From positions 1 to 20,209 of IMG/VR virus record IMGVR_UViG_3300006350_000020: a stretch of 20,209 bases of DNA. One strand, written 5' to 3'. The notes under the pieces were generated by a model that ran no database searches, had not been told where the DNA came from, and saw nothing but the letters and a program-made list of their open reading frames with translations. Source of the stretch: a virus. This document shows positions 434 to 11,297 of this stretch, piece after piece; the stretch's first letter is position 1, and each line of letters opens with the position of its first letter. Both the position numbers and the translations under genes were made by a program.

Positions 434-1933
434 TTATATAAGATCAAGAATGTTTATAGTGGGTTCTTGTGCCACTTCTTGAACTGGTTGATAATCTTGT
501 ATTCTTTTCTGAATTAAGTTACCATAGTCTTCATTGAGTTCACACCCAATATAATAACGATTGAGTGATTTTGCTACTGCCGCTGTAGTTCCTGCACCCA
601 TAAATGGGTCAAGTACTGTGTCTCCTTCTTCACTCCCTGCTTTGATGCAAGGTTCGATTAAGTCAGGTGGATATGTTGCAAAATGCGCCTCTTTGTATGG
701 TTTAACAGTAACAGACCAAACAGATCGTTTATTCTTTGTGTTTGACACAACGACTTCATCAGTTTTTAACTCGTAGTAAGTCAATCCTTCATCCATCACA
801 CTAGAGTCATCTATGTACTCTCGTACCTTTTTCCAATCTTCGATGCTTGGATATGAAAAACCAGACTCATCAAATCTAAACCAATGCTCTATTTTTGTGA
901 GTGGAATATCAGTATGCTCTGCTAATATTTTTGCTTTGGTTTTTGATCTTAAAAATTCAACAAACTCTTGTTGTGTTGGTAATTTAGTGCGAACTGCAAT
1001 TAAATTATCTCCACGATTTGCATGGATACCCTGTCTGTGTTTTGCTTCATTCTCTTGTGAACCATACTTACCATGTGATTTTTCTTCTGCTAACCAAACA
1101 GACCGTTTGTTTTTTGTAGGATAAGACTTGGTAAGCCCACTATGAGGAGCCAAGCCACTACCAGGATTGTGGTACTTACCATTTGTGCGATCTCTTGTTC
1201 CCCAATCTTTTGCGGGTTCTTTAATTGCTTCATTGTCATAAAAATACTTTTTACTCTTGCTCAATAGAAATATGTACTCATGTGCTTTAGTACATCTATC
1301 CTTGACACTCTCAGGCATAGGATTGGGTTTATGCCATATGATATCTTGTCTTAGATACCAACCATCCGCACGTAATGCGAATGCTAACATCCAAGGTATG
1401 CCTATCAAGTCTTTTTGTTTCAATCCTTCTAGTTTATTACCTCTCACTGGTGTACTCTGTGGTAAATCCTGTCTAGTTTTAGATACTGTCTGTTTAGGAT
1501 AGTTACCATCACTACGATAGTTATAGTATGAATCTCCTATGTTCAACCATAATGTACCATCATCCGTAAGACAATCACGGACTAATGAGAACACCTTGAC
1601 CATTTCTTTCACATAATCTTCTGGTGTCTGCTCTAATCCAATTTGACTATCTTGTCTTATTGCACCACACTTAGGGCAAACAGATTTGTAAATGGCATCT
1701 CCCACTCCTGCCATGTCATCATGGTTCTTGTGTCCTGTGTTACAATTCTCAGGTTTGACTTTTGTATCTCTCCTATGATTGCAATTTGGGTCGCCACCTA
1801 TCCACGTTGCTGTACCATAGTCACGTAGACCATAATAAGGAGGTGATGTCACACACATCCGTGCTTTTGTATCAGAGGTTGCAATTGTTTTGAGTGACTC
1901 ACGACAATCGCCAAATAATATAAGGTCTTTCAT
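434..1933 (-). CDS. Site-specific DNA methyltransferase, beta class (N4-cytosine or N6-adenine)
   Basis: A 499-residue S-adenosylmethionine-dependent DNA amino-methyltransferase. The catalytic motif IV TSPPYYGLRDYG is at residues 29-40. The AdoMet-binding motif I LDPFMGAGTT is at 441-450, followed by an acidic CELNEDY stretch. The order IV then I marks the beta class. WHKPNPMPESVKDR (200-213) is typical of the family. SPPY favours N4-cytosine but N6-adenine is not excluded. Cys/His residues C51, H53, C64, C86 and C89 (CPKC) could form a zinc site. Residues 281-398 form an insert flanked by two copies of TKNKRSVW (273-280 and 399-406). The insert contains a helix-turn-helix-like segment (ILAEHTDIPLTKIEHWF), a candidate target-recognition element. 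The ATG abuts the TAA of the preceding gene (TAAATG). All key motifs are intact, so it should be active. Its partner may be the candidate nuclease at 2478-3071; alternatively it is a solitary methyltransferase that protects phage DNA. Family call certain, target base and sequence unknown. Confidence 0.95.
   Translation of the reverse strand: MKDLILFGDCRESLKTIATSDTKARMCVTSPPYYGLRDYGTATWIGGDPNCNHRRDTKVKPENCNTGHKNHDDMAGVGDAIYKSVCPKCGAIRQDSQIGLEQTPEDYVKEMVKVFSLVRDCLTDDGTLWLNIGDSYYNYRSDGNYPKQTVSKTRQDLPQSTPVRGNKLEGLKQKDLIGIPWMLAFALRADGWYLRQDIIWHKPNPMPESVKDRCTKAHEYIFLLSKSKKYFYDNEAIKEPAKDWGTRDRTNGKYHNPGSGLAPHSGLTKSYPTKNKRSVWLAEEKSHGKYGSQENEAKHRQGIHANRGDNLIAVRTKLPTQQEFVEFLRSKTKAKILAEHTDIPLTKIEHWFRFDESGFSYPSIEDWKKVREYIDDSSVMDEGLTYYELKTDEVVVSNTKNKRSVWSVTVKPYKEAHFATYPPDLIEPCIKAGSEEGDTVLDPFMGAGTTAAVAKSLNRYYIGCELNEDYGNLIQKRIQDYQPVQEVAQEPTINILDLI
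716..1117 (-). repeat. Direct repeat of TKNKRSVW flanking an insert in the methyltransferase
   Basis: Two 24-base stretches, 716-739 and 1094-1117, match at 21 of 24 positions and encode the same octapeptide in frame. They bracket about 118 residues that include the helix-turn-helix-like segment. The second copy leads directly into the conserved C-terminal half (PYKEAHFATYPPDL). The arrangement could reflect an old insertion or duplication, or simply be normal for this methyltransferase subfamily. Confidence 0.7.
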
Positions 1934-2477: not shown

Positions 2478-3071
2478 TTATAAAGACATAAGTTTTTTAT
2501 AGAAAGGACCTACTACAACTCCTTCACTGTAGTGAGCATGTTCCTTGAGTAAATCCTTGTTTATGTAGTGAACTGTTAGGTCTGGATTGTCTATCCAGTT
2601 ACTGTAAGTCCATGAACAAGAGCGAACATATCTGTTCTTCTGTTCTTCACATATGCGTACAATTTGATCATTCAATCTTTCAGCGATTGATTCAAATTTA
2701 AACTCTACAACATATATTAGCATACCATCAGCAAAAAGGGAAGAGATGATAGGTAAATTAACACTTACATCTCTTTCATATCTACTTCTAGTATAATCAT
2801 TGAAACATCCACCACCATTTGTTCTCTTACCAGTATAGTTTTTAGGTTTGATTTCTTTCTCAACACCATTGATATCAATAGCATCACGACCTAATTTACC
2901 TGGTATAGTTTTACAACCCGCAACAGCAGCAGTTATCTGTTCACGTAAAGTAGAACTGTTTGGATCACCCATATACTCTTTGTATAGTTCTTCAAACAGT
3001 TCTCCTTGATTCTTAGTTGGTTTACCCAACGCACGATCTACTGCTAGTTTGAGTAGTTTAGTTGAGAACAT
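2478..3071 (-). CDS. Candidate PD-(D/E)XK-type nuclease (197 aa)
   Basis: A 197-residue protein not matched to a named family. GRDAIDINGVEKEIKPKN (residues 61-78) has the layout of a PD-(D/E)XK nuclease core: an acidic residue (D63 or D66) on one strand, a turn, then E73-x-K75 on the next. A Gly-rich segment (GKRTNGGGCFNDYTRSRYE, 81-99) follows, then a hydrophobic strand with a second E-x-K (VVEFKF, 121-126). The remainder is mixed alpha/beta. It is the first gene after a sigma-70-like promoter and shares a unit with a DNA methyltransferase. Type II restriction enzymes often have this size, fold and company. Other options are a phage DNA-processing nuclease or an unrelated fold with a chance ExK. 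The start is the ATG just downstream of the promoter, with a short leader and no canonical Shine-Dalgarno sequence. The ORF is firm; the nuclease call is inference. Confidence 0.5.
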   Translation of the reverse strand: MFSTKLLKLAVDRALGKPTKNQGELFEELYKEYMGDPNSSTLREQITAAVAGCKTIPGKLGRDAIDINGVEKEIKPKNYTGKRTNGGGCFNDYTRSRYERDVSVNLPIISSLFADGMLIYVVEFKFESIAERLNDQIVRICEEQKNRYVRSCSWTYSNWIDNPDLTVHYINKDLLKEHAHYSEGVVVGPFYKKLMSL

Positions 3072-3150: not shown

Positions 3151-3492
3151 TTAATTTTGCCAAGTTATATCACCAAGTAGATCAACAACATAAGCACTTA
3201 TGTAATGATCTGCATCTGGGCATTGTGTCAATTTAGGAAACCATGATTCTGCATTAATACCAGCAGCAGTTTCATCGTCAAATCTAATTGTATTGTATAT
3301 TCCACCTTGTTTTATTATATCCATAACATAATCATCCACAAAAGATTCGTAATATGTTGTCACAGTTGCTTTTTTTGTAGCGTCTAGACTATTATATTTG
3401 TCTAGATTGAAATACAAACATGCACACTGGTTCCTATTGGCATAATAAGATACCAAATCAAATAAAGATAGTTCGTTTCCCTGTATAATCAT
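3151..3492 (-). CDS. Hypothetical phage protein (113 aa) after the chaperone-like gene
   Basis: A 113-residue protein of unknown function. It has alternating short hydrophobic strands and helices (ELSLFDLVSYYANR, CACLYFNLDKY, then VTTYYESFVDDYVMDIIKQG) and an acidic, aromatic C-terminal half (DADHYISAYVVDLLGDITWQ). No membrane segment or signal peptide. The ATG overlaps the TGA of the 290-residue gene (ATGA), and a Shine-Dalgarno sequence (AGGA, 5-base spacer) sits within that gene's last codons. It is the last gene before the terminator hairpin of the tail-fibre unit, so a role in fibre assembly or as a minor structural part is possible, but only by position. Confidence 0.7.
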   Translation of the reverse strand: MIIQGNELSLFDLVSYYANRNQCACLYFNLDKYNSLDATKKATVTTYYESFVDDYVMDIIKQGGIYNTIRFDDETAAGINAESWFPKLTQCPDADHYISAYVVDLLGDITWQN

Positions 3493-4361
3493 GGTGATCC
3501 TAATTCATTTTGTGCTTGTTGAATTATTAAATTCAAGAACTCTGTCTTATCATAAGCATTAGCGAGTTCATCTGTAGCATTTACTGTTACAGATTTGCTT
3601 ATTTGATACTCAGTGATAAGTTGACTAAAGTAATTGGTCTGTGTTAATGATTTTAATAGTAAGAAGTGTGCTATCTTATCTTTAAACTGTTTGAGATAAT
3701 GATTTGCTAATGGTAAAAACTGATCATCTGTTGCAAGGTATGCATTAGATGGAAATTCTGCTTTGTATATTTTATTATAGAACTCAGGTGATATTGGAAA
3801 CTTAGTGCCTTCTGCATTACCAGAAAACTCAGGAGTATTAGTAATATCTCTCAGTTTAGTTCTATATGTAGTATACATTGCCTTATCATCAGCACTTAAT
3901 GGACAATCAGTACACATTACCCAATCAGATTCATCTAATAAGAAATTTCTTGCAAGTCTTACACTCAATGGTGTAACAGTCGCTTGCCTAGCATACATTT
4001 GTGCTAGTTCTGTTTGAAAATTAGTATTCTCTATAGAATCAATTAGATACCAACCTTCAATTAATTTATCTTTGAGAGCAGTAGCTTTAGCATTATCAAC
4101 TGCTTCCATCTCATAGTCTTTCCACTCATCAGTATTAGTCTTAAAGTTTCTTACAAACTTTCTACGTGCAGCAATATACTTATTACTGTCACTATAATAA
4201 CTAAATGTTATCAGTTTATCTTTATCACTGTCCCAATCAGGGTATAATAGAGGGACTAATGTATCTTTCCAATAAGTTTCTGGAATAGGTTTTGCTGAAC
4301 CCATATATGTTAATTCTTGTGCTATTACATCTAATTGCACTCTTAGTACTGGTGTTGACAT
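3489..4361 (-). CDS. Probable tail-fibre assembly chaperone-like protein (290 aa)
   Basis: A 290-residue mainly helical soluble protein. Residues 135-172 read RLARNFLLDESDW, then PLSADDKAMYTTYRTKLRDI. This fits the pattern seen in phage tail-fibre assembly/attachment chaperones: R-x-x-LL-x-x-SDW, a proline-led turn, then YR-x-x-LRDI. In those families the segment lies near the C-terminus of a shorter protein; here about 130 residues precede it and about 110 follow, so this is a longer relative or a fusion. A CTDC pair (150-153) sits between the two halves of the motif. Position supports the call: it directly follows the fibre/adhesin genes, where such chaperones usually sit. It would act in the infected cell to fold or trimerise the fibre tip and is not expected in the virion. 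Alternative: a structural protein with a chance match. A GGAG lies 14 bases before the ATG, rather far for a ribosome binding site. Confidence 0.6.
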   Translation of the reverse strand: MSTPVLRVQLDVIAQELTYMGSAKPIPETYWKDTLVPLLYPDWDSDKDKLITFSYYSDSNKYIAARRKFVRNFKTNTDEWKDYEMEAVDNAKATALKDKLIEGWYLIDSIENTNFQTELAQMYARQATVTPLSVRLARNFLLDESDWVMCTDCPLSADDKAMYTTYRTKLRDITNTPEFSGNAEGTKFPISPEFYNKIYKAEFPSNAYLATDDQFLPLANHYLKQFKDKIAHFLLLKSLTQTNYFSQLITEYQISKSVTVNATDELANAYDKTEFLNLIIQQAQNELGSP

Positions 4362-4383: not shown

Positions 4384-4391
4384 TATTTAGT
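4384..4391 (-). promoter_or_regulatory. Possible T4-like late promoter element before the chaperone-like gene
   Basis: On the minus strand ACTAAATA matches the T4 late consensus TATAAATA at 6 of 8 positions. It lies about 23 bases before the ATG at 4361, in one of only two non-coding gaps of any size in the right-hand module. The gap is only 29 bases and AT-rich, so a chance match is quite possible. Confidence 0.3.
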
Positions 4392-7300
4392 TAATATGCT
4401 TTAATTAAGTATTTACACGTTCTATAAGGATGTATTAATGGTACATCTATGTCTGGATCAATAGTAGCCTGTGGTTCAATTTTAGTTGTTGCTTTCATTG
4501 TTAATGTAGCATCACTACAACTAAGACCAGAACTATATGTAATAGAAGGACCGACTTCACCTTGAACTGTATAAGTTAATGAATCAACATTTTGTTTAAG
4601 TATTTTACCAGCAGTAGGAACATATACTAAAACGGTTGCCTTTCCATTCCACCATATAAATTCACAAATTGCAAAATGATCTGTATTACCAGCATTATCA
4701 TTTGTAGATGATGCATCAGCACGTGTCTGTTCTATTTTAAAATTAGTACCTGATGCCTTTGCATTTTGTGGTAATGCAACTGTATAAGTGTACCATTTAG
4801 TATCACCAGAAGCACCATCCCAACTATTATTCAAATCAACAGCTGGTACAGTACCAATAAAAGGATCATTTCTTGATGTAGTTCTTCCTGCGATAATAGT
4901 ATCAACCAATATCCAAGTAGTAGGTGATCCTGCTGTTGAGTAATATACTTTCAATGATTCTTCTGATGCATCACCACCGTTTACACCATTTCCTCTCGCT
5001 GCTTTAATAGAAAAATGAGTAGCATTTGATGTATCTACAGGCATCAATTCTATCCATCTCGTTTTAGCACCAACAGAACTCTGATTATGGTTTCCTCCAA
5101 ATAACACATAATTTGTATAGGCAGTTGCACCAGTAACAGCAATACTATCAACCTTATCAGAATTACCTCCAGTTCCTAGAGTTGCAGTAGCAACTGCGTT
5201 TCCACCTTGACCATTTAACACATGAACATATGGTGTCTCAGTATATCCAGATCCACCATTTGTTACATTAATACCTGTAATTAAACCACCTGTCATAACT
5301 GGTGTTGCTGTCGCACCAGTTCCACCACCCCCACGAATTAATATAATTGGATCTGCTGTTGGAAGTTTAAATCCACCAGCATTACCAGTTCCAGCACCGT
5401 TAGTTTTGAGTGAAACATCATCAACATTTTTATCATATGATGCTGATTTAATAATATCATCTTGTGTTTCAACTACTGTAGGGTTATCATATCCAGTAAT
5501 AACACCAACTGTAACTTTAGCATATCCATCAGCACCATTAGCTGTAGTTCCTGATGTTTGGCCTGCCATTGATACACCATTACCACCAGAACCTACTTTA
5601 ACTTCTATGCTTGAGGGACTACCTAGTTGAGCAAATTCCACATATCCACCCCATAGTCCACCACCAGCTCCACCTCCTCCACCTGGAGTCCAATAATCAT
5701 TATTATATTCTATTGTCACTGATGCTTTACCAGTATTTCTACTAGAATTAGCAAGAGTTCCAGATTCAAAGTAAGTAGTAGAATAAGATGAGACACCTTG
5801 GGAACCACCTGCACCACCACCGTGACCACCAGATCCACCAGGTCCACCACCGATACCACCAGTACCTCCACCTCCACCGATCAATTGGTTAGGAGTACCG
5901 CAGCCACCGCCACCTCCTCCTCCACCGCCACCGATGCATCCATAATTACCACCTTTACCACCAACACCAAATCCAAGTAGTGCGTTTGTTGCTTGAATAC
6001 CTCCAATAGATGAAGGAACTGGTTGTCCTACTTGTCCTGCACCACCATCATATCCATTAGAACCACCGCCACCGCCACCACCAGCACCAATAACAGCTGT
6101 TCCATTTCTTAATACTCCTGTGACTGCACCACCTCCACCACCATGAGCAGTTCCTGAACCACCTGGATGACCATTACCACCATTACCACCATCACCAGAA
6201 GCTGTTTTTGCTCCTCCTGCTTTTGAAAAATTACCATCTGCAAATCCACCACCTATCTCACATGTCCATGTGGCTGATGTAAAATTTGCTATTTGAGTTG
6301 ATTTTAAGGATACATTTACTTTACCACCAGCACCACCATCAATATTACCATAATTTCCCATACTTCCTCTACCACCATGCAATTCAAAAGTAACTGAAGT
6401 AATTCCAAAAATACCAGATAAATTAAAAGTACCATCACTGGTAAAATTTTGAGTCTGAGTACCACTCTGTCCACCAACCAATACATTTATTCCTGCTTTA
6501 CCATCACTATATGAACCAGTATTAGCACCACCAGCACCACCATCATTAGGGTTACTCGGATAATCAACATATGGCCATCCACCACCTGCTGTACCATCAC
6601 CACCAGCACCACCATCTTGTCCTGTTACTCCACCAGGTGCATTTGCAGAACCAGTATTAACTGCTGTTCCACCACTGCTAATACCTCCACCAAATAAACC
6701 AGTAGTCGCTTTTCCACCTTCTCCACCATTAGCTTTTAAGAATAAAAATGATCCATCACCAACCTTAACATAACTTTGATTACCATCATTACCTGCCTGT
6801 GTACCAGCAGCACCCGATCCGCCAGCACCACCTAAAGTATATGTTAATCTATCTGGGTCTCCATTGATAGAATTTAGATCAATAGTATAGGTTCCAGGAC
6901 TTCCATATTCAAAATCAGTATTATCAAATACTGGAACTCCACCTGTAGTAATATATTTACCACCAATAACAGTGGTAGTAAGAATAGGTTTCATTACAGG
7001 ATTTGGTATGATAGTCTGAAATTCATAGGATCCAGATCCACTACCAGATGCGAGATAATAATCACCAGGTTCATTAGATCCATTTGCGAAACCTGTAATA
7101 GGATCAGCAGTACCACCAGCACCACCTGCACCACCTGCAAAATCAAGAGCATCATATGTTGCAACTGTATTATCTGTAAGAGGTGATCTTAGAAGACCAT
7201 GCTTATGTGTTAATACAATACCATCACCAGTTGGATACCATCTATCAATTCTTCCTGTACCTGTCTCATAATCTTGTAGATATCTGTCTCCACTTGCACC

Positions 7301-8239
7301 ACCTACCCACTCGTTAATGCCAGGAGTAGAAAGAAATACAATATGATTGTGTTGAGGAACACCAGAAAGTTTTTTCTCTCTCATTGTTATTGTAACATCC
7401 TGACTACCAATAATATTACAACCAGTAGTTTCAATTACCTGATCATATCCACTGGTAATAATTGTACCTAAAGAGAAATATTCATCTTGTTGATCTTTAT
7501 CAAGATACCATGCACCACCTGTAATACCTGTTGATATACTAACATTTCCAATATTAGGAGAGTTGTTGCCATATACAGGACCATTACCAACTATTTTCTT
7601 AGCAATTAAATCAGGAACTTTAAATGTTCCTAGATATGGATCACCCCAATTCTCCATTACATTACTAGTATTAATCGCTCTTAATGTTCCACCTTCAAGT
7701 AATGGAGATATTCTCACTACAAATGTAGCACCAGTTCCACCAGATACTGATACAGTGGGAGCTGTAGCATATCCTTGTCCACTATTTGTAATATTGAAGA
7801 ACAAAATTTTTCCATTTGAATCAACAGCTCCAACTGATGCTTCCATATTAACTCCACCAGCTGGTGCTGAAGTTATAGTTACATTAGAAGATGTTGTGTA
7901 TCCAGATCCACCAGTAACTACATCAATTCCATTACTAGATCTTCCACCATATTTTGTACCAACAATTTCATATAATCCTGGATAATCAGCTATATTATAT
8001 TCTGTCCCATCACAATATAAGTATCCTTCATGTGTATATGCAGGATCATCACCTGTGACATAAGCATTACCAGAATTTTCAGATAGATTTGGATAAGAAC
8101 TAGCAGATGCCTTAACAAAACTATGATCGTAAGAATTTTGACCTGCTTTTAAGTTAGTTACAATAGAACCGATAGGTGTTGTATCTATGAGAAGATCTGT
8201 TAAATATCCTTTTCTATTATTTCTATATGCTTGTGTCAT
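4391..8239 (-). CDS. Glycine-rich tail-collar adhesin (1282 aa), probable receptor-binding fibre protein
   Basis: A 1282-residue virion protein. Residues 20-35 (TTPIGSIVTNLKAG), 72-99 (GYLYCDGTEYNIADYPGLYE) and 203-218 (LGTFKVPDLIAKKIVG) together form a phage tail-collar domain, split by about 100 residues containing two G-x-GY repeats. HxH motifs occur at 297-299 (QHNH) and 345-347 (THKHG). Residues about 365-911 are dominated by Gly tracts, with ten consecutive Gly between C768 and C780. Glycine-rich adhesin modules begin near 597 (NFTSDGTFNLSGIFGITSVT). A third G-x-GY repeat is at 995-1020, and a beta-rich region at 1040-1200 resembles a carbohydrate-binding or lectin-like fold, though unproven. 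The C-terminus KYLIKAY matches the 550-residue paralogue. By analogy with Gly-rich T-even phage adhesins it may form the receptor-contacting tip. It follows the 467-residue gene by two bases and precedes the chaperone-like gene. Collar call strong; receptor role inferred. Confidence 0.85.
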   Translation of the reverse strand: MTQAYRNNRKGYLTDLLIDTTPIGSIVTNLKAGQNSYDHSFVKASASSYPNLSENSGNAYVTGDDPAYTHEGYLYCDGTEYNIADYPGLYEIVGTKYGGRSSNGIDVVTGGSGYTTSSNVTITSAPAGGVNMEASVGAVDSNGKILFFNITNSGQGYATAPTVSVSGGTGATFVVRISPLLEGGTLRAINTSNVMENWGDPYLGTFKVPDLIAKKIVGNGPVYGNNSPNIGNVSISTGITGGAWYLDKDQQDEYFSLGTIITSGYDQVIETTGCNIIGSQDVTITMREKKLSGVPQHNHIVFLSTPGINEWVGGASGDRYLQDYETGTGRIDRWYPTGDGIVLTHKHGLLRSPLTDNTVATYDALDFAGGAGGAGGTADPITGFANGSNEPGDYYLASGSGSGSYEFQTIIPNPVMKPILTTTVIGGKYITTGGVPVFDNTDFEYGSPGTYTIDLNSINGDPDRLTYTLGGAGGSGAAGTQAGNDGNQSYVKVGDGSFLFLKANGGEGGKATTGLFGGGISSGGTAVNTGSANAPGGVTGQDGGAGGDGTAGGGWPYVDYPSNPNDGGAGGANTGSYSDGKAGINVLVGGQSGTQTQNFTSDGTFNLSGIFGITSVTFELHGGRGSMGNYGNIDGGAGGKVNVSLKSTQIANFTSATWTCEIGGGFADGNFSKAGGAKTASGDGGNGGNGHPGGSGTAHGGGGGAVTGVLRNGTAVIGAGGGGGGGSNGYDGGAGQVGQPVPSSIGGIQATNALLGFGVGGKGGNYGCIGGGGGGGGGGCGTPNQLIGGGGGTGGIGGGPGGSGGHGGGAGGSQGVSSYSTTYFESGTLANSSRNTGKASVTIEYNNDYWTPGGGGGAGGGLWGGYVEFAQLGSPSSIEVKVGSGGNGVSMAGQTSGTTANGADGYAKVTVGVITGYDNPTVVETQDDIIKSASYDKNVDDVSLKTNGAGTGNAGGFKLPTADPIILIRGGGGTGATATPVMTGGLITGINVTNGGSGYTETPYVHVLNGQGGNAVATATLGTGGNSDKVDSIAVTGATAYTNYVLFGGNHNQSSVGAKTRWIELMPVDTSNATHFSIKAARGNGVNGGDASEESLKVYYSTAGSPTTWILVDTIIAGRTTSRNDPFIGTVPAVDLNNSWDGASGDTKWYTYTVALPQNAKASGTNFKIEQTRADASSTNDNAGNTDHFAICEFIWWNGKATVLVYVPTAGKILKQNVDSLTYTVQGEVGPSITYSSGLSCSDATLTMKATTKIEPQATIDPDIDVPLIHPYRTCKYLIKAY
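5180..5287 (-). repeat. Third G-x-GY beta repeat in the 1282-aa adhesin
   Basis: Encodes residues 985-1020, with the pattern VTNGGSGYTETPYVHVLNG followed by a Gly/Ala/Thr strand. It matches the two repeats inside the collar insert (GGSGYTTSSNVTITSAP near 110 and NSGQGYATAPTVSVSGG near 152). The same element thus occurs on both sides of the Gly-rich core. Confidence 0.7.
5507..7147 (-). repeat. Low-complexity glycine-rich region of the adhesin gene
   Basis: Encodes residues about 365-911. The coding strand is made largely of GGN codons, seen on the plus strand as runs of CCA, CCT and CCG. The densest part, about 5800-6200, is clearly richer in G+C than its AT-rich surroundings. The Gly runs are irregular, without a Gly-X-Y triplet rhythm, so it is not collagen-like. 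Packed polyglycine type II helices, as in some T-even phage adhesins, are the best structural guess. Confidence 0.8.
7634..7939 (-). other. Insert splitting the collar domain of the 1282-aa protein
   Basis: Residues 101-202 separate the 'YLYCDGTEY..YPGLYEIVGTKYGG' half of the collar domain from its usual continuation 'TFKVPDL'. In most collar domains these are separated by only a few residues. The insert holds two G-x-GY beta repeats, an Ala/Val linker and a short segment ending NVMENWGDPY. Confidence 0.65.
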
Positions 8240-8241
8240 AA

Positions 8242-9645
8242 TTATATCTTAATTAGAAATTCCATTACAATAAATGGAGCGACAGCAGAATCAATTGATT
8301 TTGATGCATCCGTTCCTATAGTCATCGTTGTTGATAAATTTTCTGGACTAACAGTAATTGCATCCGTTTTTACTTTATATGTATGATCACCTTTTTCTAA
8401 ATCAACCCGATGACTATGCAATGTTGGATCACCATTTGGTTGTGATAAATCTTGAGTATCATACTCCTCATTTTGTACATCAGGAACTATACTACTATTA
8501 CCAACCTGTTGATTTGATTGCATAGGTAACACATCATGCAAACTTGCATTGTTAAAATCAAGTGGTACGCCAGGAAATCCATTAGCATAAGTTACAGGAA
8601 CAGTAAAAGTGTGACTTGCATCATCTCCTCCACCAGGAGAAAAACACCCACCAAAGAAACCTTTTACTGAGTTTTTATAACGAGCAGTGTTTTGTCCATC
8701 TGGTGATCCTGTTGCTGGTGTGCCTGATGGTTGATTATTTCCACCTTGTAATGAATATGGATCGTTATTAAGACATTGGTATGTGTATTGATTCTCACCT
8801 GGAAGCCAACCACCATTTATACAATGACCCCAATAAATTGTTTGTTGAAATCCCGCAAGTTGAGTACTAACCGCATTTCCACAAGGACTGACAGGACACC
8901 AACGACCAGTACGACATTGTTCTTGACCACTTCCAGGTTCACCACTATTATTTACAGTAGCATTTAACCAATCTTGTATGGCAATTGTTGTTGCATTTCT
9001 TTTACCAGTAAATCCTTGAACTTGTGGTTGATTAGTGCTAGGTTCATTAGTGGATAACAATCTTGATCTCTTTGCATCATGAAAATGTGAATGTGGATGA
9101 ATAGCATTTTCTTCAACTCCCTCTATATCTGTATAGTGAGTAGGACCAGCATATGTCCATGATGGTTTGCCTTTAACAGGAATTTCTTGACTAGGTACAT
9201 TAATTTGTCCTGAATATTCTATATTTACAGGACTTCCAATTGCAGATTCTACATCAATACCAATACCAGATCTACTAAATTCATTGCCTAAAGCATTATC
9301 TAATCTTATATTGTTATATACACCAGCATTAGCACCTGAAGTTGGTTCAGCATATTTAGATCCCATATCAGGAACCATAAACTGAGTATCTAACAAATTG
9401 TCAAAATTAGTACCATCTGCATTTTTTCTAATAAATTTACAATTAGATCCTGTTCCACAAATAGCAGCAAGTTGTGGATAATCTACTGCAAGGTATTTTG
9501 TACCATCACATTTTAAATAACCAGCAGGTAAATCATCTTTATTTCCCCCGTCATCTGGTAACCCACTATAATCAACTGGCCAAGTTATAATTTGACCTGA
9601 CAAATTACCATATTTAGATCTTTCTTTAGTGTATAAAACTGCCAT
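8242..9645 (-). CDS. Tail-collar domain fibre protein (467 aa)
   Basis: A 467-residue virion protein, second of three collar paralogues. The collar domain spans about 41-96 (AGYLKCDGTKYLAVDYPQL to QFMVPDMGSKY). Its central Gly-Gly turn is replaced by a GTGSNCKFIRKNADGT segment. A run of alternating histidines, HPHSHFH, lies at 183-189 and a further HSH at 410-412, reminiscent of the metal-binding HxH motifs of T4 short and long tail-fibre tips. Six cysteines between 244 and 334 may form disulphides or bind metal. The C-terminus ...VMEFLIKI is a variant of the FIIKAY tail of its paralogues. The N-terminus MAVLYTKERSKYGN resembles the upstream paralogue's MAVKYDSIKT. Its ATG shares one base with the stop of the 550-residue gene (TAATG), and the 1282-residue gene begins two bases after its stop. 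A gp12-like short tail-fibre role is possible. Confidence 0.8.
   Translation of the reverse strand: MAVLYTKERSKYGNLSGQIITWPVDYSGLPDDGGNKDDLPAGYLKCDGTKYLAVDYPQLAAICGTGSNCKFIRKNADGTNFDNLLDTQFMVPDMGSKYAEPTSGANAGVYNNIRLDNALGNEFSRSGIGIDVESAIGSPVNIEYSGQINVPSQEIPVKGKPSWTYAGPTHYTDIEGVEENAIHPHSHFHDAKRSRLLSTNEPSTNQPQVQGFTGKRNATTIAIQDWLNATVNNSGEPGSGQEQCRTGRWCPVSPCGNAVSTQLAGFQQTIYWGHCINGGWLPGENQYTYQCLNNDPYSLQGGNNQPSGTPATGSPDGQNTARYKNSVKGFFGGCFSPGGGDDASHTFTVPVTYANGFPGVPLDFNNASLHDVLPMQSNQQVGNSSIVPDVQNEEYDTQDLSQPNGDPTLHSHRVDLEKGDHTYKVKTDAITVSPENLSTTMTIGTDASKSIDSAVAPFIVMEFLIKI
9079..9099 (-). other. Alternating histidine motif HPHSHFH
   Basis: Encodes residues 183-189 of the 467-residue collar protein. Four histidines at every second position would point to the same side of a beta strand. 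In a trimer this could stack octahedral metal sites, as known for HxH motifs in T4 gp37 and gp12. Confidence 0.6.
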
Positions 9646-11297
9646 TAGTATGCTTTAATTATAAACGTAAGAGTTAAGCAAGGTTGTGATGTATCACATG
9701 CAATATTTAGAGCATTTTCAAGACTGTCTGCTTGCAATGTAGACCCATTTGCATCATCAGCAGTGTGTGATGGAGGTCCAGCCATTGAACCAATACCTTG
9801 AGCTATCTCAAAACTACCATGATTATGTGCTCTAAATGCTTGCTCTAAAGGATTTTTATTTTCCTTACCTTGATTTAATGTCATTGGGTATGAACCATGC
9901 CTGAACACTAAGGTTTCTGTACCAGTAACTGTTCCTAACTGATCTTTTACAGTGACTGTATATTGATCAGTTGTTGAATCATATACAACCTTCTCTACTA
10001 TTGAACCACCAGTATTTGTCCAGTAAGTATATTTTTTAGCAGGATCTTTTATAGTAACAAACATTAATGGAGTAATTCTATCATGCTGAATCCATGTGTC
10101 TGGTGCAGTACCATAGGTTCTACCGATATAAAGTCCAGCTGGTAATACAATTTCTCTTGTGTTTGAAGGAATAGTTACACTAGCAACTTCAAATGCTGCA
10201 CTTGCATGCTCTGGATCGTCAGCCAAACCATCAGCGGGTCTTGGTTGTCCATCATATCCAAGATAATTTGGTCTTGATCTTCTTTCCATTGGTCTTGGAA
10301 ACATACCAATGTGTGCAGGTTGTTGATGAGTAGATACTGGAGTTGTAGCATTGATCTGTGCTGTATTTCCTTTACCAAATATATTTTGAGTATAAGTTTG
10401 AGTTCCTTGACCAGATCCTTGATCAACTCCTCTCCAGTTAGCAGCACCAGCTGGAACATTATTCCAATAATCTTTACCAGCTTCATTAGTAAATTCATAA
10501 AATCTATCCATTATTGGTAACGTCCACTCATGTGCTTCATCTCCATACATTGATAATTCAACAGCACCTTCATTCCATGATACTGGTTGAGCAGCTGCGT
10601 TAGCACAAGTGTTAGGTCCTTCTATTTGATCACAAATAGTTTCTTGAGCAGTACCAGTCATTGCAATACCTTGGTCTGTCTCAAACGCCATAGGTCCAGT
10701 AGCATTTGGATTAGTGGTTTGAAGTGTATCACCATGACTATGTGCTGGTGTATGATTAATACCCAATTTACGATTGAGCACATACACGGTTTCTAAAAAA
10801 TCTGGAGCACTCAATGTGAATCCAGTAAATTTAAAATATAAATTACCAGCAAGATTTAAAGAAAAATCAATATCAGATGTTGCTGAATATGTTGTTGATA
10901 TTATGTTAGTTTCACCATATTCAAACACTCTACTTCCTATCACAGTTGCAGCATCAGATTGTCCTTGTTGATACTTAGGATTTTGTAAATTTGCAGGTTC
11001 TAAATCCATCAACACACTTGCTGATAACTGAGGTAATCTAAATGTTGCTCCTGTAGTAACATAAGGAAACTCATAATGATTACCCTGAGCATCAGTCATA
11101 TCACCACCATAAGTATCACCTATGACTGATGCTAATAAAGGATAATCAGCAGCACTAAGTGTATCACCTTTACATACAATCCATCCTTTTGGGATGTTAG
11201 ATTCAAGGAACCCATTTCCTCCATCGCCACCCCAAGGCATGATCGTACCAATTTTGGCAGATCTCATTGTTTTTATTGAATCGTATTTTACTGCCAT
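9645..11297 (-). CDS. Tail-collar domain fibre protein (550 aa)
   Basis: A 550-residue virion protein, first of three collar paralogues. The collar domain is the most canonical of the three: KIGTIMPWGGDG (15-26), KGWIVCKGDTLSAADYPLL (37-55), then VIGDTYGGD, ending at FRLPQL (86-91). HSH at 186-188 and HNH at 491-493 (FRAHNHGSFEIAQG) are likely metal-binding HxH motifs of a trimeric fibre. Residues 365-470 form a beta-rich domain (VTIPSNTREIVLPAG, then KKYTYWTNTGGSIVEKVVY). The C-terminus is CLTLTFIIKAY. A strong Shine-Dalgarno sequence (GGAG, 6-base spacer) lies in the last codons of the giant gene, whose TAA abuts this ATG, so it is probably well translated late in infection. It could be a gp12-like short tail fibre or a receptor-binding fibre component; sequence alone does not decide. 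Confidence 0.85.
   Translation of the reverse strand: MAVKYDSIKTMRSAKIGTIMPWGGDGGNGFLESNIPKGWIVCKGDTLSAADYPLLASVIGDTYGGDMTDAQGNHYEFPYVTTGATFRLPQLSASVLMDLEPANLQNPKYQQGQSDAATVIGSRVFEYGETNIISTTYSATSDIDFSLNLAGNLYFKFTGFTLSAPDFLETVYVLNRKLGINHTPAHSHGDTLQTTNPNATGPMAFETDQGIAMTGTAQETICDQIEGPNTCANAAAQPVSWNEGAVELSMYGDEAHEWTLPIMDRFYEFTNEAGKDYWNNVPAGAANWRGVDQGSGQGTQTYTQNIFGKGNTAQINATTPVSTHQQPAHIGMFPRPMERRSRPNYLGYDGQPRPADGLADDPEHASAAFEVASVTIPSNTREIVLPAGLYIGRTYGTAPDTWIQHDRITPLMFVTIKDPAKKYTYWTNTGGSIVEKVVYDSTTDQYTVTVKDQLGTVTGTETLVFRHGSYPMTLNQGKENKNPLEQAFRAHNHGSFEIAQGIGSMAGPPSHTADDANGSTLQADSLENALNIACDTSQPCLTLTFIIKAY

What the first reader, a model, noticed from the sequence alone, without database searches (positions are those of the whole stretch)
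5507..7147. Exceptionally large glycine-rich adhesin region
About 550 residues are dominated by irregular Gly runs. In T-even relatives with a Gly-rich adhesin (for example phage S16 gp38) a much smaller set of such motifs forms packed polyglycine helices that display receptor-binding loops. A far larger version fused to a collar domain in one polypeptide would be a new architecture for host recognition.
Basis: partly seen in the sequence, partly recalled or inferred. Interest (0 to 1): 0.55.

Follow-up and report, generated by a model that had tools for sequence, protein, structure and literature searches.

The report
Nested glycine-rich cyanophage tail-fibre head
A marine cyanobacterial virus carries a tail-fibre protein whose unusually glycine-rich stretch is predicted to be two folded domains, one inside the other, the inner one resembling the ligand-binding domain of the animal receptor ALK and known phage fibre tips; it probably helps the virus recognise its host.

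Summary
In detail: residues 365-911 of a 1282-aa minus-strand protein (window 4391-8239) contain 169 Gly in 547 (31%). It is not one oversized gp38-type polyglycine sandwich. AlphaFold2 (mean pLDDT 83) predicts an ordered, nested structure. An inner domain (residues 592-846) matches the ALK/LTK glycine-rich domain (Z 14.4) and phage proteins Pam3 gp24 (Z 9.3) and Bxb1 tail tip (Z 9.1). It sits inside a second Gly-rich jelly-roll-like unit (437-591 + 847-916). A Reelin-like jelly roll (Z about 14) probably encloses both, and everything is inserted between the HxH knob and last strand of a collar-type fibre head. Gly positions are conserved; residues between them evolve fastest (dN/dS 0.61, against 0.23-0.28 in collar part and C-terminus). 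In several relatives the C-terminal Reelin-like part is exchanged together with the next gene, a fibre-chaperone homologue, at a 37-bp conserved junction. Isolates S-WAM2 and S-RSM4 carry the same kind of protein. Most likely role: a multi-domain receptor-binding head. Fold is predicted; binding is inferred. New variant of a known kind: known domains in a nested arrangement that limited literature searches did not find described.

The parts
4391..8239 (-). 1282-aa collar-type tail-fibre protein carrying the Gly-rich region
   Evidence: ORF; Pfam Collar E 1.4e-8, 35 bits against cut-off 24; phrog_30655 virion structural protein E 3.6e-176
7937..8035 (-). Phage Tail Collar domain core, residues 69-101
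   Evidence: PF07484
7700..7933 (-). Small module inserted after the collar core, residues about 103-180; also found alone in other cyanophage fibre proteins
   Evidence: 14 of the 18 records match only residues 93-172; similar to residues 961-1030
7199..7351 (-). Knob with two HxH motifs (residues 297-299 and 345-347), as in collar-type fibre heads
   Evidence: Two HxH motifs in 23 of 23 full-length family members; HxH motifs also in fib2, fib3, L042 and L043. A metal-binding role is recalled from T4 gp12
6980..7006 (-). Probable first strand of the Reelin-like jelly roll, residues about 412-420
   Evidence: VIA matches to reelin/MAM/Eph begin at model residue about 330 and end at about 1118, i.e. 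protein 412-1200
6467..6931 (-). Outer Gly-rich jelly-roll-like domain, N-terminal part, residues 437-591
   Evidence: pLDDT mostly above 80, strands predicted; weak jelly-roll matches spanning model 23-502, Z 5.2 or less
5702..6466 (-). Inner ALK/Pam3-type glycine-rich domain, residues 592-846, 90 Gly of 255
   Evidence: VIA Z 14.4, rmsd 3.4, 189 aligned to ALK; Pam3 fibre 7ypx Z 9.3; Bxb1 tail tip 9d93 Z 9.1; Gly count; profile match to the single GRD of L042
5492..5701 (-). Outer Gly-rich jelly-roll-like domain, C-terminal part, residues 847-916
5358..5394 (-). 37-bp conserved junction where two groups of relatives switch between near-identical and diverged
   Evidence: 35-37 of 37 bases identical in all 8 loci compared; identity changes sharply on either side in L001 and in L010-L012
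4394..5359 (-). C-terminal exchange block, residues 961-1282: small module, Reelin-like jelly roll, last strand of the collar head
   Evidence: Reelin_subrepeat-B below threshold in 6 of 6 members scanned; reelin VIA Z 14.3; C-terminal strand shared with L042/L043
3489..4361 (-). Tail-fibre assembly chaperone homologue directly downstream
   Evidence: PF16778 E 1e-9; phrog_4697 and phrog_4912; same place in S-WAM2; exchanged with the fibre C-terminus in L001
8242..9645 (-). Second collar-type fibre gene (467 aa)
   Evidence: PF07484, phrog_31602
9645..11297 (-). Third collar-type fibre gene (550 aa), with a sequence match to T4 gp12
   Evidence: PF07484; phmmer to T4 short tail fibre 1ocy E 0.0011

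Best explanation
This is the receptor-binding head of a collar-type (T4 gp12-like) tail fibre of a marine T4-like cyanophage. Between the HxH knob and the last strand of the collar head about 780 extra residues are inserted. They form a probable Reelin-like jelly roll, a Gly-rich jelly-roll-like domain carried by it, and inside that an ALK/Pam3-gp24-type domain: a TNF-like beta sandwich whose Gly-rich extensions pack side by side into a stiff lattice. Sequence-variable loops at the ends of these extensions, and the exchangeable C-terminal Reelin-like domain, would contact the host surface. The gene next door encodes the assembly chaperone. Shown here: ORF, collar domain, conservation pattern, chaperone homologue, exchange block. 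Predicted: inner fold (strong), outer fold and nesting (moderate), Reelin-like enclosure (moderate). Inferred: polyglycine-II helices, receptor binding, virion location.
For: Collar domain above cut-off. AF2 on 26 sequences: mean pLDDT 83.2, five models 80-83. Foldseek's first ten rows are all ALK/LTK domains, best E 4.2e-5; VIA Z 14.4 ALK, 9.3 Pam3 fibre, 9.1 Bxb1, unrelated rows 5.2 or less; the inner domain is reproduced in the second, longer model at Z 14.3. Profile comparison of the inner domain with a single Gly-rich domain of another phage fibre (L042) scores 51.8 against a maximum of 18.3 in 30 column shuffles. Gly columns conserved (entropy 0.23 against 0.87 bits); dN/dS 0.61 at non-Gly sites of 437-916 against 0.28 for residues 1-360 and 0.23 in the C-terminus. 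Chaperone homologue next door; Pam3 gp24 also works with a chaperone, gp25 (PMC9608196, passages and one section read). An insert-free collar head exists in L042: the same two flanks are 153 residues apart instead of 935.
Against: No experiment places the protein in a virion or shows binding. Pfam and PDB sequence searches do not recognise the Gly-rich part, although the Gly-rich domain of L042, used as a control, is missed too. The outer domain has only weak structural matches (Z 5.2 or less). The HxH knob is modelled with very low confidence (model 2, pLDDT below 50 over residues 199-405), as may happen for an intertwined trimer folded as a monomer. pTM is only 0.61 and 0.38. No negative control with a scrambled Gly-rich sequence could be folded. 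Over all 13 close relatives the chaperone's divergence follows the Gly region (0.64) as well as the C-terminus (0.61), so the statistics do not single out its partner.
Confidence: 0.7

Rival explanations
1. The Gly-rich insert is structural: a stiff spacer or trimer-stabilising element that positions the real receptor-binding part, the exchangeable C-terminal Reelin-like domain. Loop variation reflects relaxed constraint, not recognition.
For: In L001 the fibre up to the end of the Gly-rich part is 99.5% identical to the window (2832 of 2845 nt for 5395-8239) while the C-terminal domain, the chaperone and the next gene are diverged (85%), with identity returning beyond them. dN/dS in the Gly region stays below 1.
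Against: The same kind of domain is proposed to bind receptors in Pam3 gp24 (PMC9608196), and mutations in a gp24-like Gly-rich domain were linked to host adaptation of another phage (PMC12671077, passages read). Non-Gly positions there are the fastest evolving of the protein.
Confidence: 0.25
2. The Gly-rich region is low-complexity, largely disordered linker grown by replication slippage.
For: High Gly content; many short CCA-rich DNA repeats on the + strand.
Against: Confident ordered prediction, specific fold match far above other rows, invariant Gly spacing down to 32-42% identity, and Gly columns under purifying selection (dN/dS 0.29).
Confidence: 0.05
3. A gp38-type T-even adhesin domain (beta-helix plus polyglycine sandwich) expanded and fused to a collar domain.
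For: Conserved Gly runs separated by variable segments, as described for gp38 (PMC6851490, PMC12892980, passages read).
Against: Best fold matches are ALK/LTK and Pam3 gp24, which have a TNF-like sandwich; two nested units rather than one enlarged lattice. Gp38 did not appear in the list, which is inconclusive.
Confidence: 0.08

Closest known systems
Tail fibre gp24 of myocyanophage Pam3 (PDB 7ypx, 7yfw; PMC9608196)
   Same: TNF-like beta sandwich with a Gly-rich lattice at the tip, presumed receptor-binding; a fibre chaperone (gp25) is also encoded; fold match Z 9.3, rmsd 3.0, 141 aligned
   Different: Pam3's Gly-rich domain has 125 residues with 49 Gly and stands at the end of a short alpha-helical fibre; here the inner unit (sandwich and lattice together) is 255 residues with 90 Gly, nested in a second Gly-rich domain and in a collar head
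Glycine-rich (TG) domain of the receptor kinases ALK and LTK
   Same: Best fold match, Z 14.4 over 189 residues
   Different: Animal receptor ectodomain; a shared fold does not show a shared function
S16/PP01/T2 gp38 adhesin with polyglycine-II sandwich (6F45; PMC6851490, PMC12892980)
   Same: Conserved Gly motifs separated by variable segments, at a fibre tip
   Different: Separate protein on gp37 with a beta-helix base; 10 Gly motifs, 37 Gly of 73; no fold match listed here (inconclusive)
T4 short tail fibre gp12 and other collar-domain fibres
   Same: Collar domain, HxH motifs, terminal IKA-type strand; neighbour fib3 matches 1ocy
   Different: About 780 extra residues between the first HxH and the last strand, compared with the insert-free head of L042
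Same protein family in Synechococcus phages S-WAM2 (P29B0810_030) and S-RSM4 (SRSM4_211)
   Same: Full-length homologues, 42% and 32% identical in alignment A1, after two other fibre genes
   Different: Annotated only as hypothetical, virion structural or putative short tail fibre; in S-RSM4 another gene separates the fibre from the chaperone homologue

Membership tests
Collar-type (T4 gp12-like) tail fibre | Pfam Collar domain PF07484 above cut-off | tested here: met
   35 bits against cut-off 24, E 1.4e-8
Collar-type (T4 gp12-like) tail fibre | HxH motifs in the knob and a terminal strand closing the head | tested here: met
   Two HxH motifs and an IKA-like end in 23 of 23 full-length members; 45-residue C-terminus matches insert-free L042 (E 3e-9) and L043 (E 7e-8)
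Collar-type (T4 gp12-like) tail fibre | Trimer with metal bound by HxH | not testable with these tools
   Monomer prediction only; the knob has very low pLDDT
Pam3 gp24-like Gly-rich fibre | TNF-like sandwich with Gly-rich lattice | tested here: met
   Predicted fold of residues 592-846, Z 9.3, rmsd 3.0, 141 aligned to 7ypx_A; prediction, not a solved structure
Pam3 gp24-like Gly-rich fibre | Associated Tfa-type chaperone gene | tested here: met
   Adjacent gene 3489-4361: PF16778 E 1e-9, phrog_4912 tail fiber assembly E 6.8e-14
Pam3 gp24-like Gly-rich fibre | N-terminal alpha-helical docking domain leading directly into the TNF-like domain | tested here: not met
   Here a collar domain and HxH knob precede it; so it is a gp24-like domain inside another kind of fibre, not a gp24 fibre
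ALK/LTK-type glycine-rich domain (fold) | Fold similarity over most of the domain | tested here: met
   Z 14.4, rmsd 3.4, 189 of 255 residues; reproduced at Z 14.3 in a second model
Pfam Gly_rich_2 (PF21722) | Score above the curated cut-off | tested here: inconclusive
   1 of 24 members matched, E 0.021; the Gly-rich domain of L042 is not matched either
T-even gp38 adhesin | Beta-helix base with polyglycine-II sandwich, capping gp37 | tested here: inconclusive
   Not listed among fold matches, which does not exclude it; no family match named gp38 or adhesin
Reelin-like jelly roll | Pfam Reelin_subrepeat-B above cut-off, or fold match | tested here: inconclusive
   Fold match Z 14.3, rmsd 2.7, 146 aligned; sequence below cut-off in 6 of 6 (best 18.6 bits against 27)

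The most novel reading that the evidence does not exclude
A matryoshka receptor-binding head: an ALK-type glycine-rich domain inserted in a second glycine-rich jelly roll, inserted after the first strand of a Reelin-like jelly roll, inserted in a gp12-like collar head, all in one chain. It would hold two recognition surfaces that evolve by different routes: fast point change in the Gly-lattice loops, and wholesale exchange of the C-terminal domain with its chaperone.
Probability: 0.4. Interest if true: 0.62.

Novelty: new variant of a known kind. Interest (0 to 1): 0.46.

Why it matters
Receptors and receptor-binding proteins of marine T4-like cyanophages are largely unknown (recalled). A defined head with candidate binding loops, a natural exchange block and a linked chaperone gives a direct experimental entry. 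It also extends the ALK/Pam3 fold from single domains to a nested form inside a common fibre type, and shows that sequence-profile libraries can miss such domains.

Tried and rejected
Single enlarged polyglycine sandwich: rejected as the main reading because two separate predicted units were found, only the inner one matching ALK/Pam3. Gp38 did not appear in the fold lists; that absence proves nothing. Disorder or slippage: disfavoured. Sequence-only searches of the PDB with the protein and with a family profile gave nothing relevant. Pfam and NCBIfam did not name the Gly-rich part. tblastn of the inner domain alone against phages found nothing even at E 10, probably because the low-complexity filter masks it. 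I tested whether the chaperone follows the C-terminal domain rather than the Gly region over 13 sequences: no preference (0.61 against 0.64), so the link rests on individual recombinants only. Outer against inner domain by profile: score 29.5 against a shuffle maximum of 17.1, but over 50 columns at 16% probability, too weak to claim a duplication. The count of Gly runs alone is not above shuffles. The PDB sequence search with the collar part found nothing.

Rows dropped before counts: L009 (same match coordinates and per-gene identities as L008) and partial loci were left out of full-length counts. Searches used the window plus 12 close relatives, leaving out the more diverged L018, L021, L027, L028, L032 and L033. 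The lists were read only as far as printed (50 rows each).

Literature: ten searches in an open-access library; none of the listed titles and abstract starts described this nested arrangement, but subscription papers and preprints are mostly not held, and I read only passages of four papers (PMC9608196, also one section; PMC6851490; PMC12671077; PMC12892980). PMC3157838 was not held.

Full report
WHAT IS THERE. The window is a 20209-base virus record. The finding lies in a minus-strand ORF, 4391-8239, of 1282 aa. The clustering and the longest run exceed 2000 shuffles of the protein; the number of runs does not. Around it stand two more collar-domain fibre genes (8242-9645, 9645-11297) and a 2938-aa short-tail-fibre-like protein upstream, and a tail-fibre assembly chaperone homologue directly downstream.

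RELATIVES. Relatives were found in 31 IMG/VR loci (in L030 the ORF I extracted was the neighbouring fibre gene), and more distant ones in a profile scan (of its ten loci, L035-L038 carry a full-length homologue). Among 50,697 phage records, two isolates carry matches along the protein: Synechococcus phages S-WAM2 (84% of the query covered) and S-RSM4 (31% in two pieces), each present as a GenBank and a RefSeq record. Their genes are annotated as hypothetical/virion structural protein and putative short tail fibre. The other 14 of 18 records match only a small module at residues 93-172.

CONSERVATION. In the alignment of the Gly-rich region (24 sequences, down to 32% identity) 58 of 59 invariant columns are Gly and one is Cys. 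Among 13 close sequences, Gly positions of residues 415-935 have a mean entropy of 0.23 bits and other positions 0.87; outside this region non-Gly positions have 0.22-0.63 by segment. Median pairwise dN/dS is 0.28 for residues 1-360, 0.61 for non-Gly sites of 437-916, 0.68 for non-Gly sites of 661-835, 0.29 for Gly sites and 0.23 for 961-1282. So a Gly framework is kept while the residues between change fast. All values are below 1: diversifying selection is not proven.

PREDICTED FOLD. AlphaFold2 on residues 415-935 with 26 sequences gives mean pLDDT 83.2, pTM 0.61, with pLDDT below 50 only at the ends and in two short stretches. The ten best Foldseek matches in the PDB are ALK or LTK glycine-rich domains. 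On re-alignment ALK scores Z 14.4 (rmsd 3.4, 189 residues) for protein residues 592-846, the Pam3 fibre Z 9.3 and a Bxb1 tail-tip protein Z 9.1; the next unrelated row has Z 5.2. That next group (galectin-like, other lectin-like and viral-capsid jelly rolls, Z 3.3-5.2) spans residues about 437-916, that is, strands before and after the inner domain. I read this as an outer Gly-rich jelly roll with the ALK/Pam3-type domain inserted in it. A second model of residues 83-1282 (mean pLDDT 66) reproduces the inner match (Z 14.3) and shows a Reelin/MAM/Eph-type jelly roll (6a48 Z 14.3, rmsd 2.7, 146 aligned) whose aligned range begins at protein residue about 412 and ends at about 1201. A range gives only first and last residue, so that the first strand precedes the Gly-rich part is probable, not shown. 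A weak Reelin_subrepeat-B match at a similar place occurs in 6 of 6 members scanned, all below cut-off. Coordinates of the models were not available to me, so polyglycine-II geometry is inferred from the ALK/Pam3 match and from the absence of strands in most of the Gly runs. The AF2 parameters used are recalled to predate the ALK structures (2021), so memory of them is unlikely; this was not tested.

PLACE IN THE FIBRE. All 23 full-length members examined have two HxH motifs and an IKA-like C-terminus; fib2, fib3, L042 and L043 share these signs. L042 and L043 have collar flanks like these without this insert: in L042 the two matching stretches (residues 202-302 and 1238-1282 here) are 153 residues apart, here 935. 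L042 carries a single Gly-rich domain at its other end; its profile score with the inner domain here is 51.8 against a shuffle maximum of 18.3. So Gly-rich domains of this type appear to have been attached to collar fibres in at least two ways.

EXCHANGE BLOCK. Compared with L001, the window is 99.5% identical over 5395-8239 (2832 of 2845), 85% over the fibre C-terminus (809 of 954), 85% over the chaperone (737 of 867) and over the next gene (288 of 338), and 98% again in gene 2478-3071 (581 of 594). L010, L011 and L012 show the reverse: 77-80% over the part of 5395-8239 that they hold, 94-98% over the C-terminus, 97-99.8% over the chaperone. All eight loci compared share 35-37 of 37 bases at 5358-5394. 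This looks like natural recombination at a conserved junction, exchanging the C-terminal domain with its neighbour genes. Over 13 sequences, however, the chaperone correlates with the Gly region as well as with the C-terminus (0.64, 0.61).

HOW IT LIKELY WORKS. By analogy with Pam3 gp24, whose Gly-rich tip is presumed to recognise the host and whose chaperone gp25 covers the tip loops during assembly (PMC9608196), and with another phage fibre of the same fold in which mutations in the Gly-rich domain were linked to host adaptation (PMC12671077), I propose that the Gly lattice is a rigid platform for variable loops, and that the Reelin-like C-terminal domain is a second, exchangeable recognition or positioning element. 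Which of the two decides host range is open; the exchange pattern favours the C-terminal domain for large shifts, and the rate pattern favours the loops for fine change.

NOVELTY. The domains are known; a Gly-rich domain nested within another, within a collar head, was not seen in the listings that my searches returned (see Tried and rejected). In the viral predicted-structure library, matches to the second model are led by S-WAM2 and S-RSM4. I therefore call it a new variant of a known kind.

Noticed in passing
window 7700-7933 and 5150-5359 (-): A small module ('GSGY...P' type) occurs twice in the protein, once after the collar core and once after the Gly-rich part, and alone in tail fibres of S-CAM4, S-RIM44 and others: it looks like a mobile insert domain of cyanophage fibres.
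   Followed up: partly
BFVD hits: Several phage proteins with this Gly-rich fold are named 'receptor protein-tyrosine kinase' in databases, probably by transfer from ALK.
   Followed up: no
L001, around residue 600 of the homologue: A 9-residue insertion sits near the boundary between the outer and inner Gly-rich domains although the flanking sequence is nearly identical to the window.
   Followed up: no
window 3151-3492 (-): Small gene without a family match, diverged together with the fibre C-terminus and chaperone in L001; possibly part of the same fibre-assembly module.
   Followed up: no
window 434-1933 (-): DNA methyltransferase-like gene (phrog_67) near the fibre cluster.
   Followed up: no
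L042:2781-6113: A different collar fibre with one Gly-rich domain at its N-terminus followed by repeated-looking domains and an insert-free collar head.
   Followed up: partly
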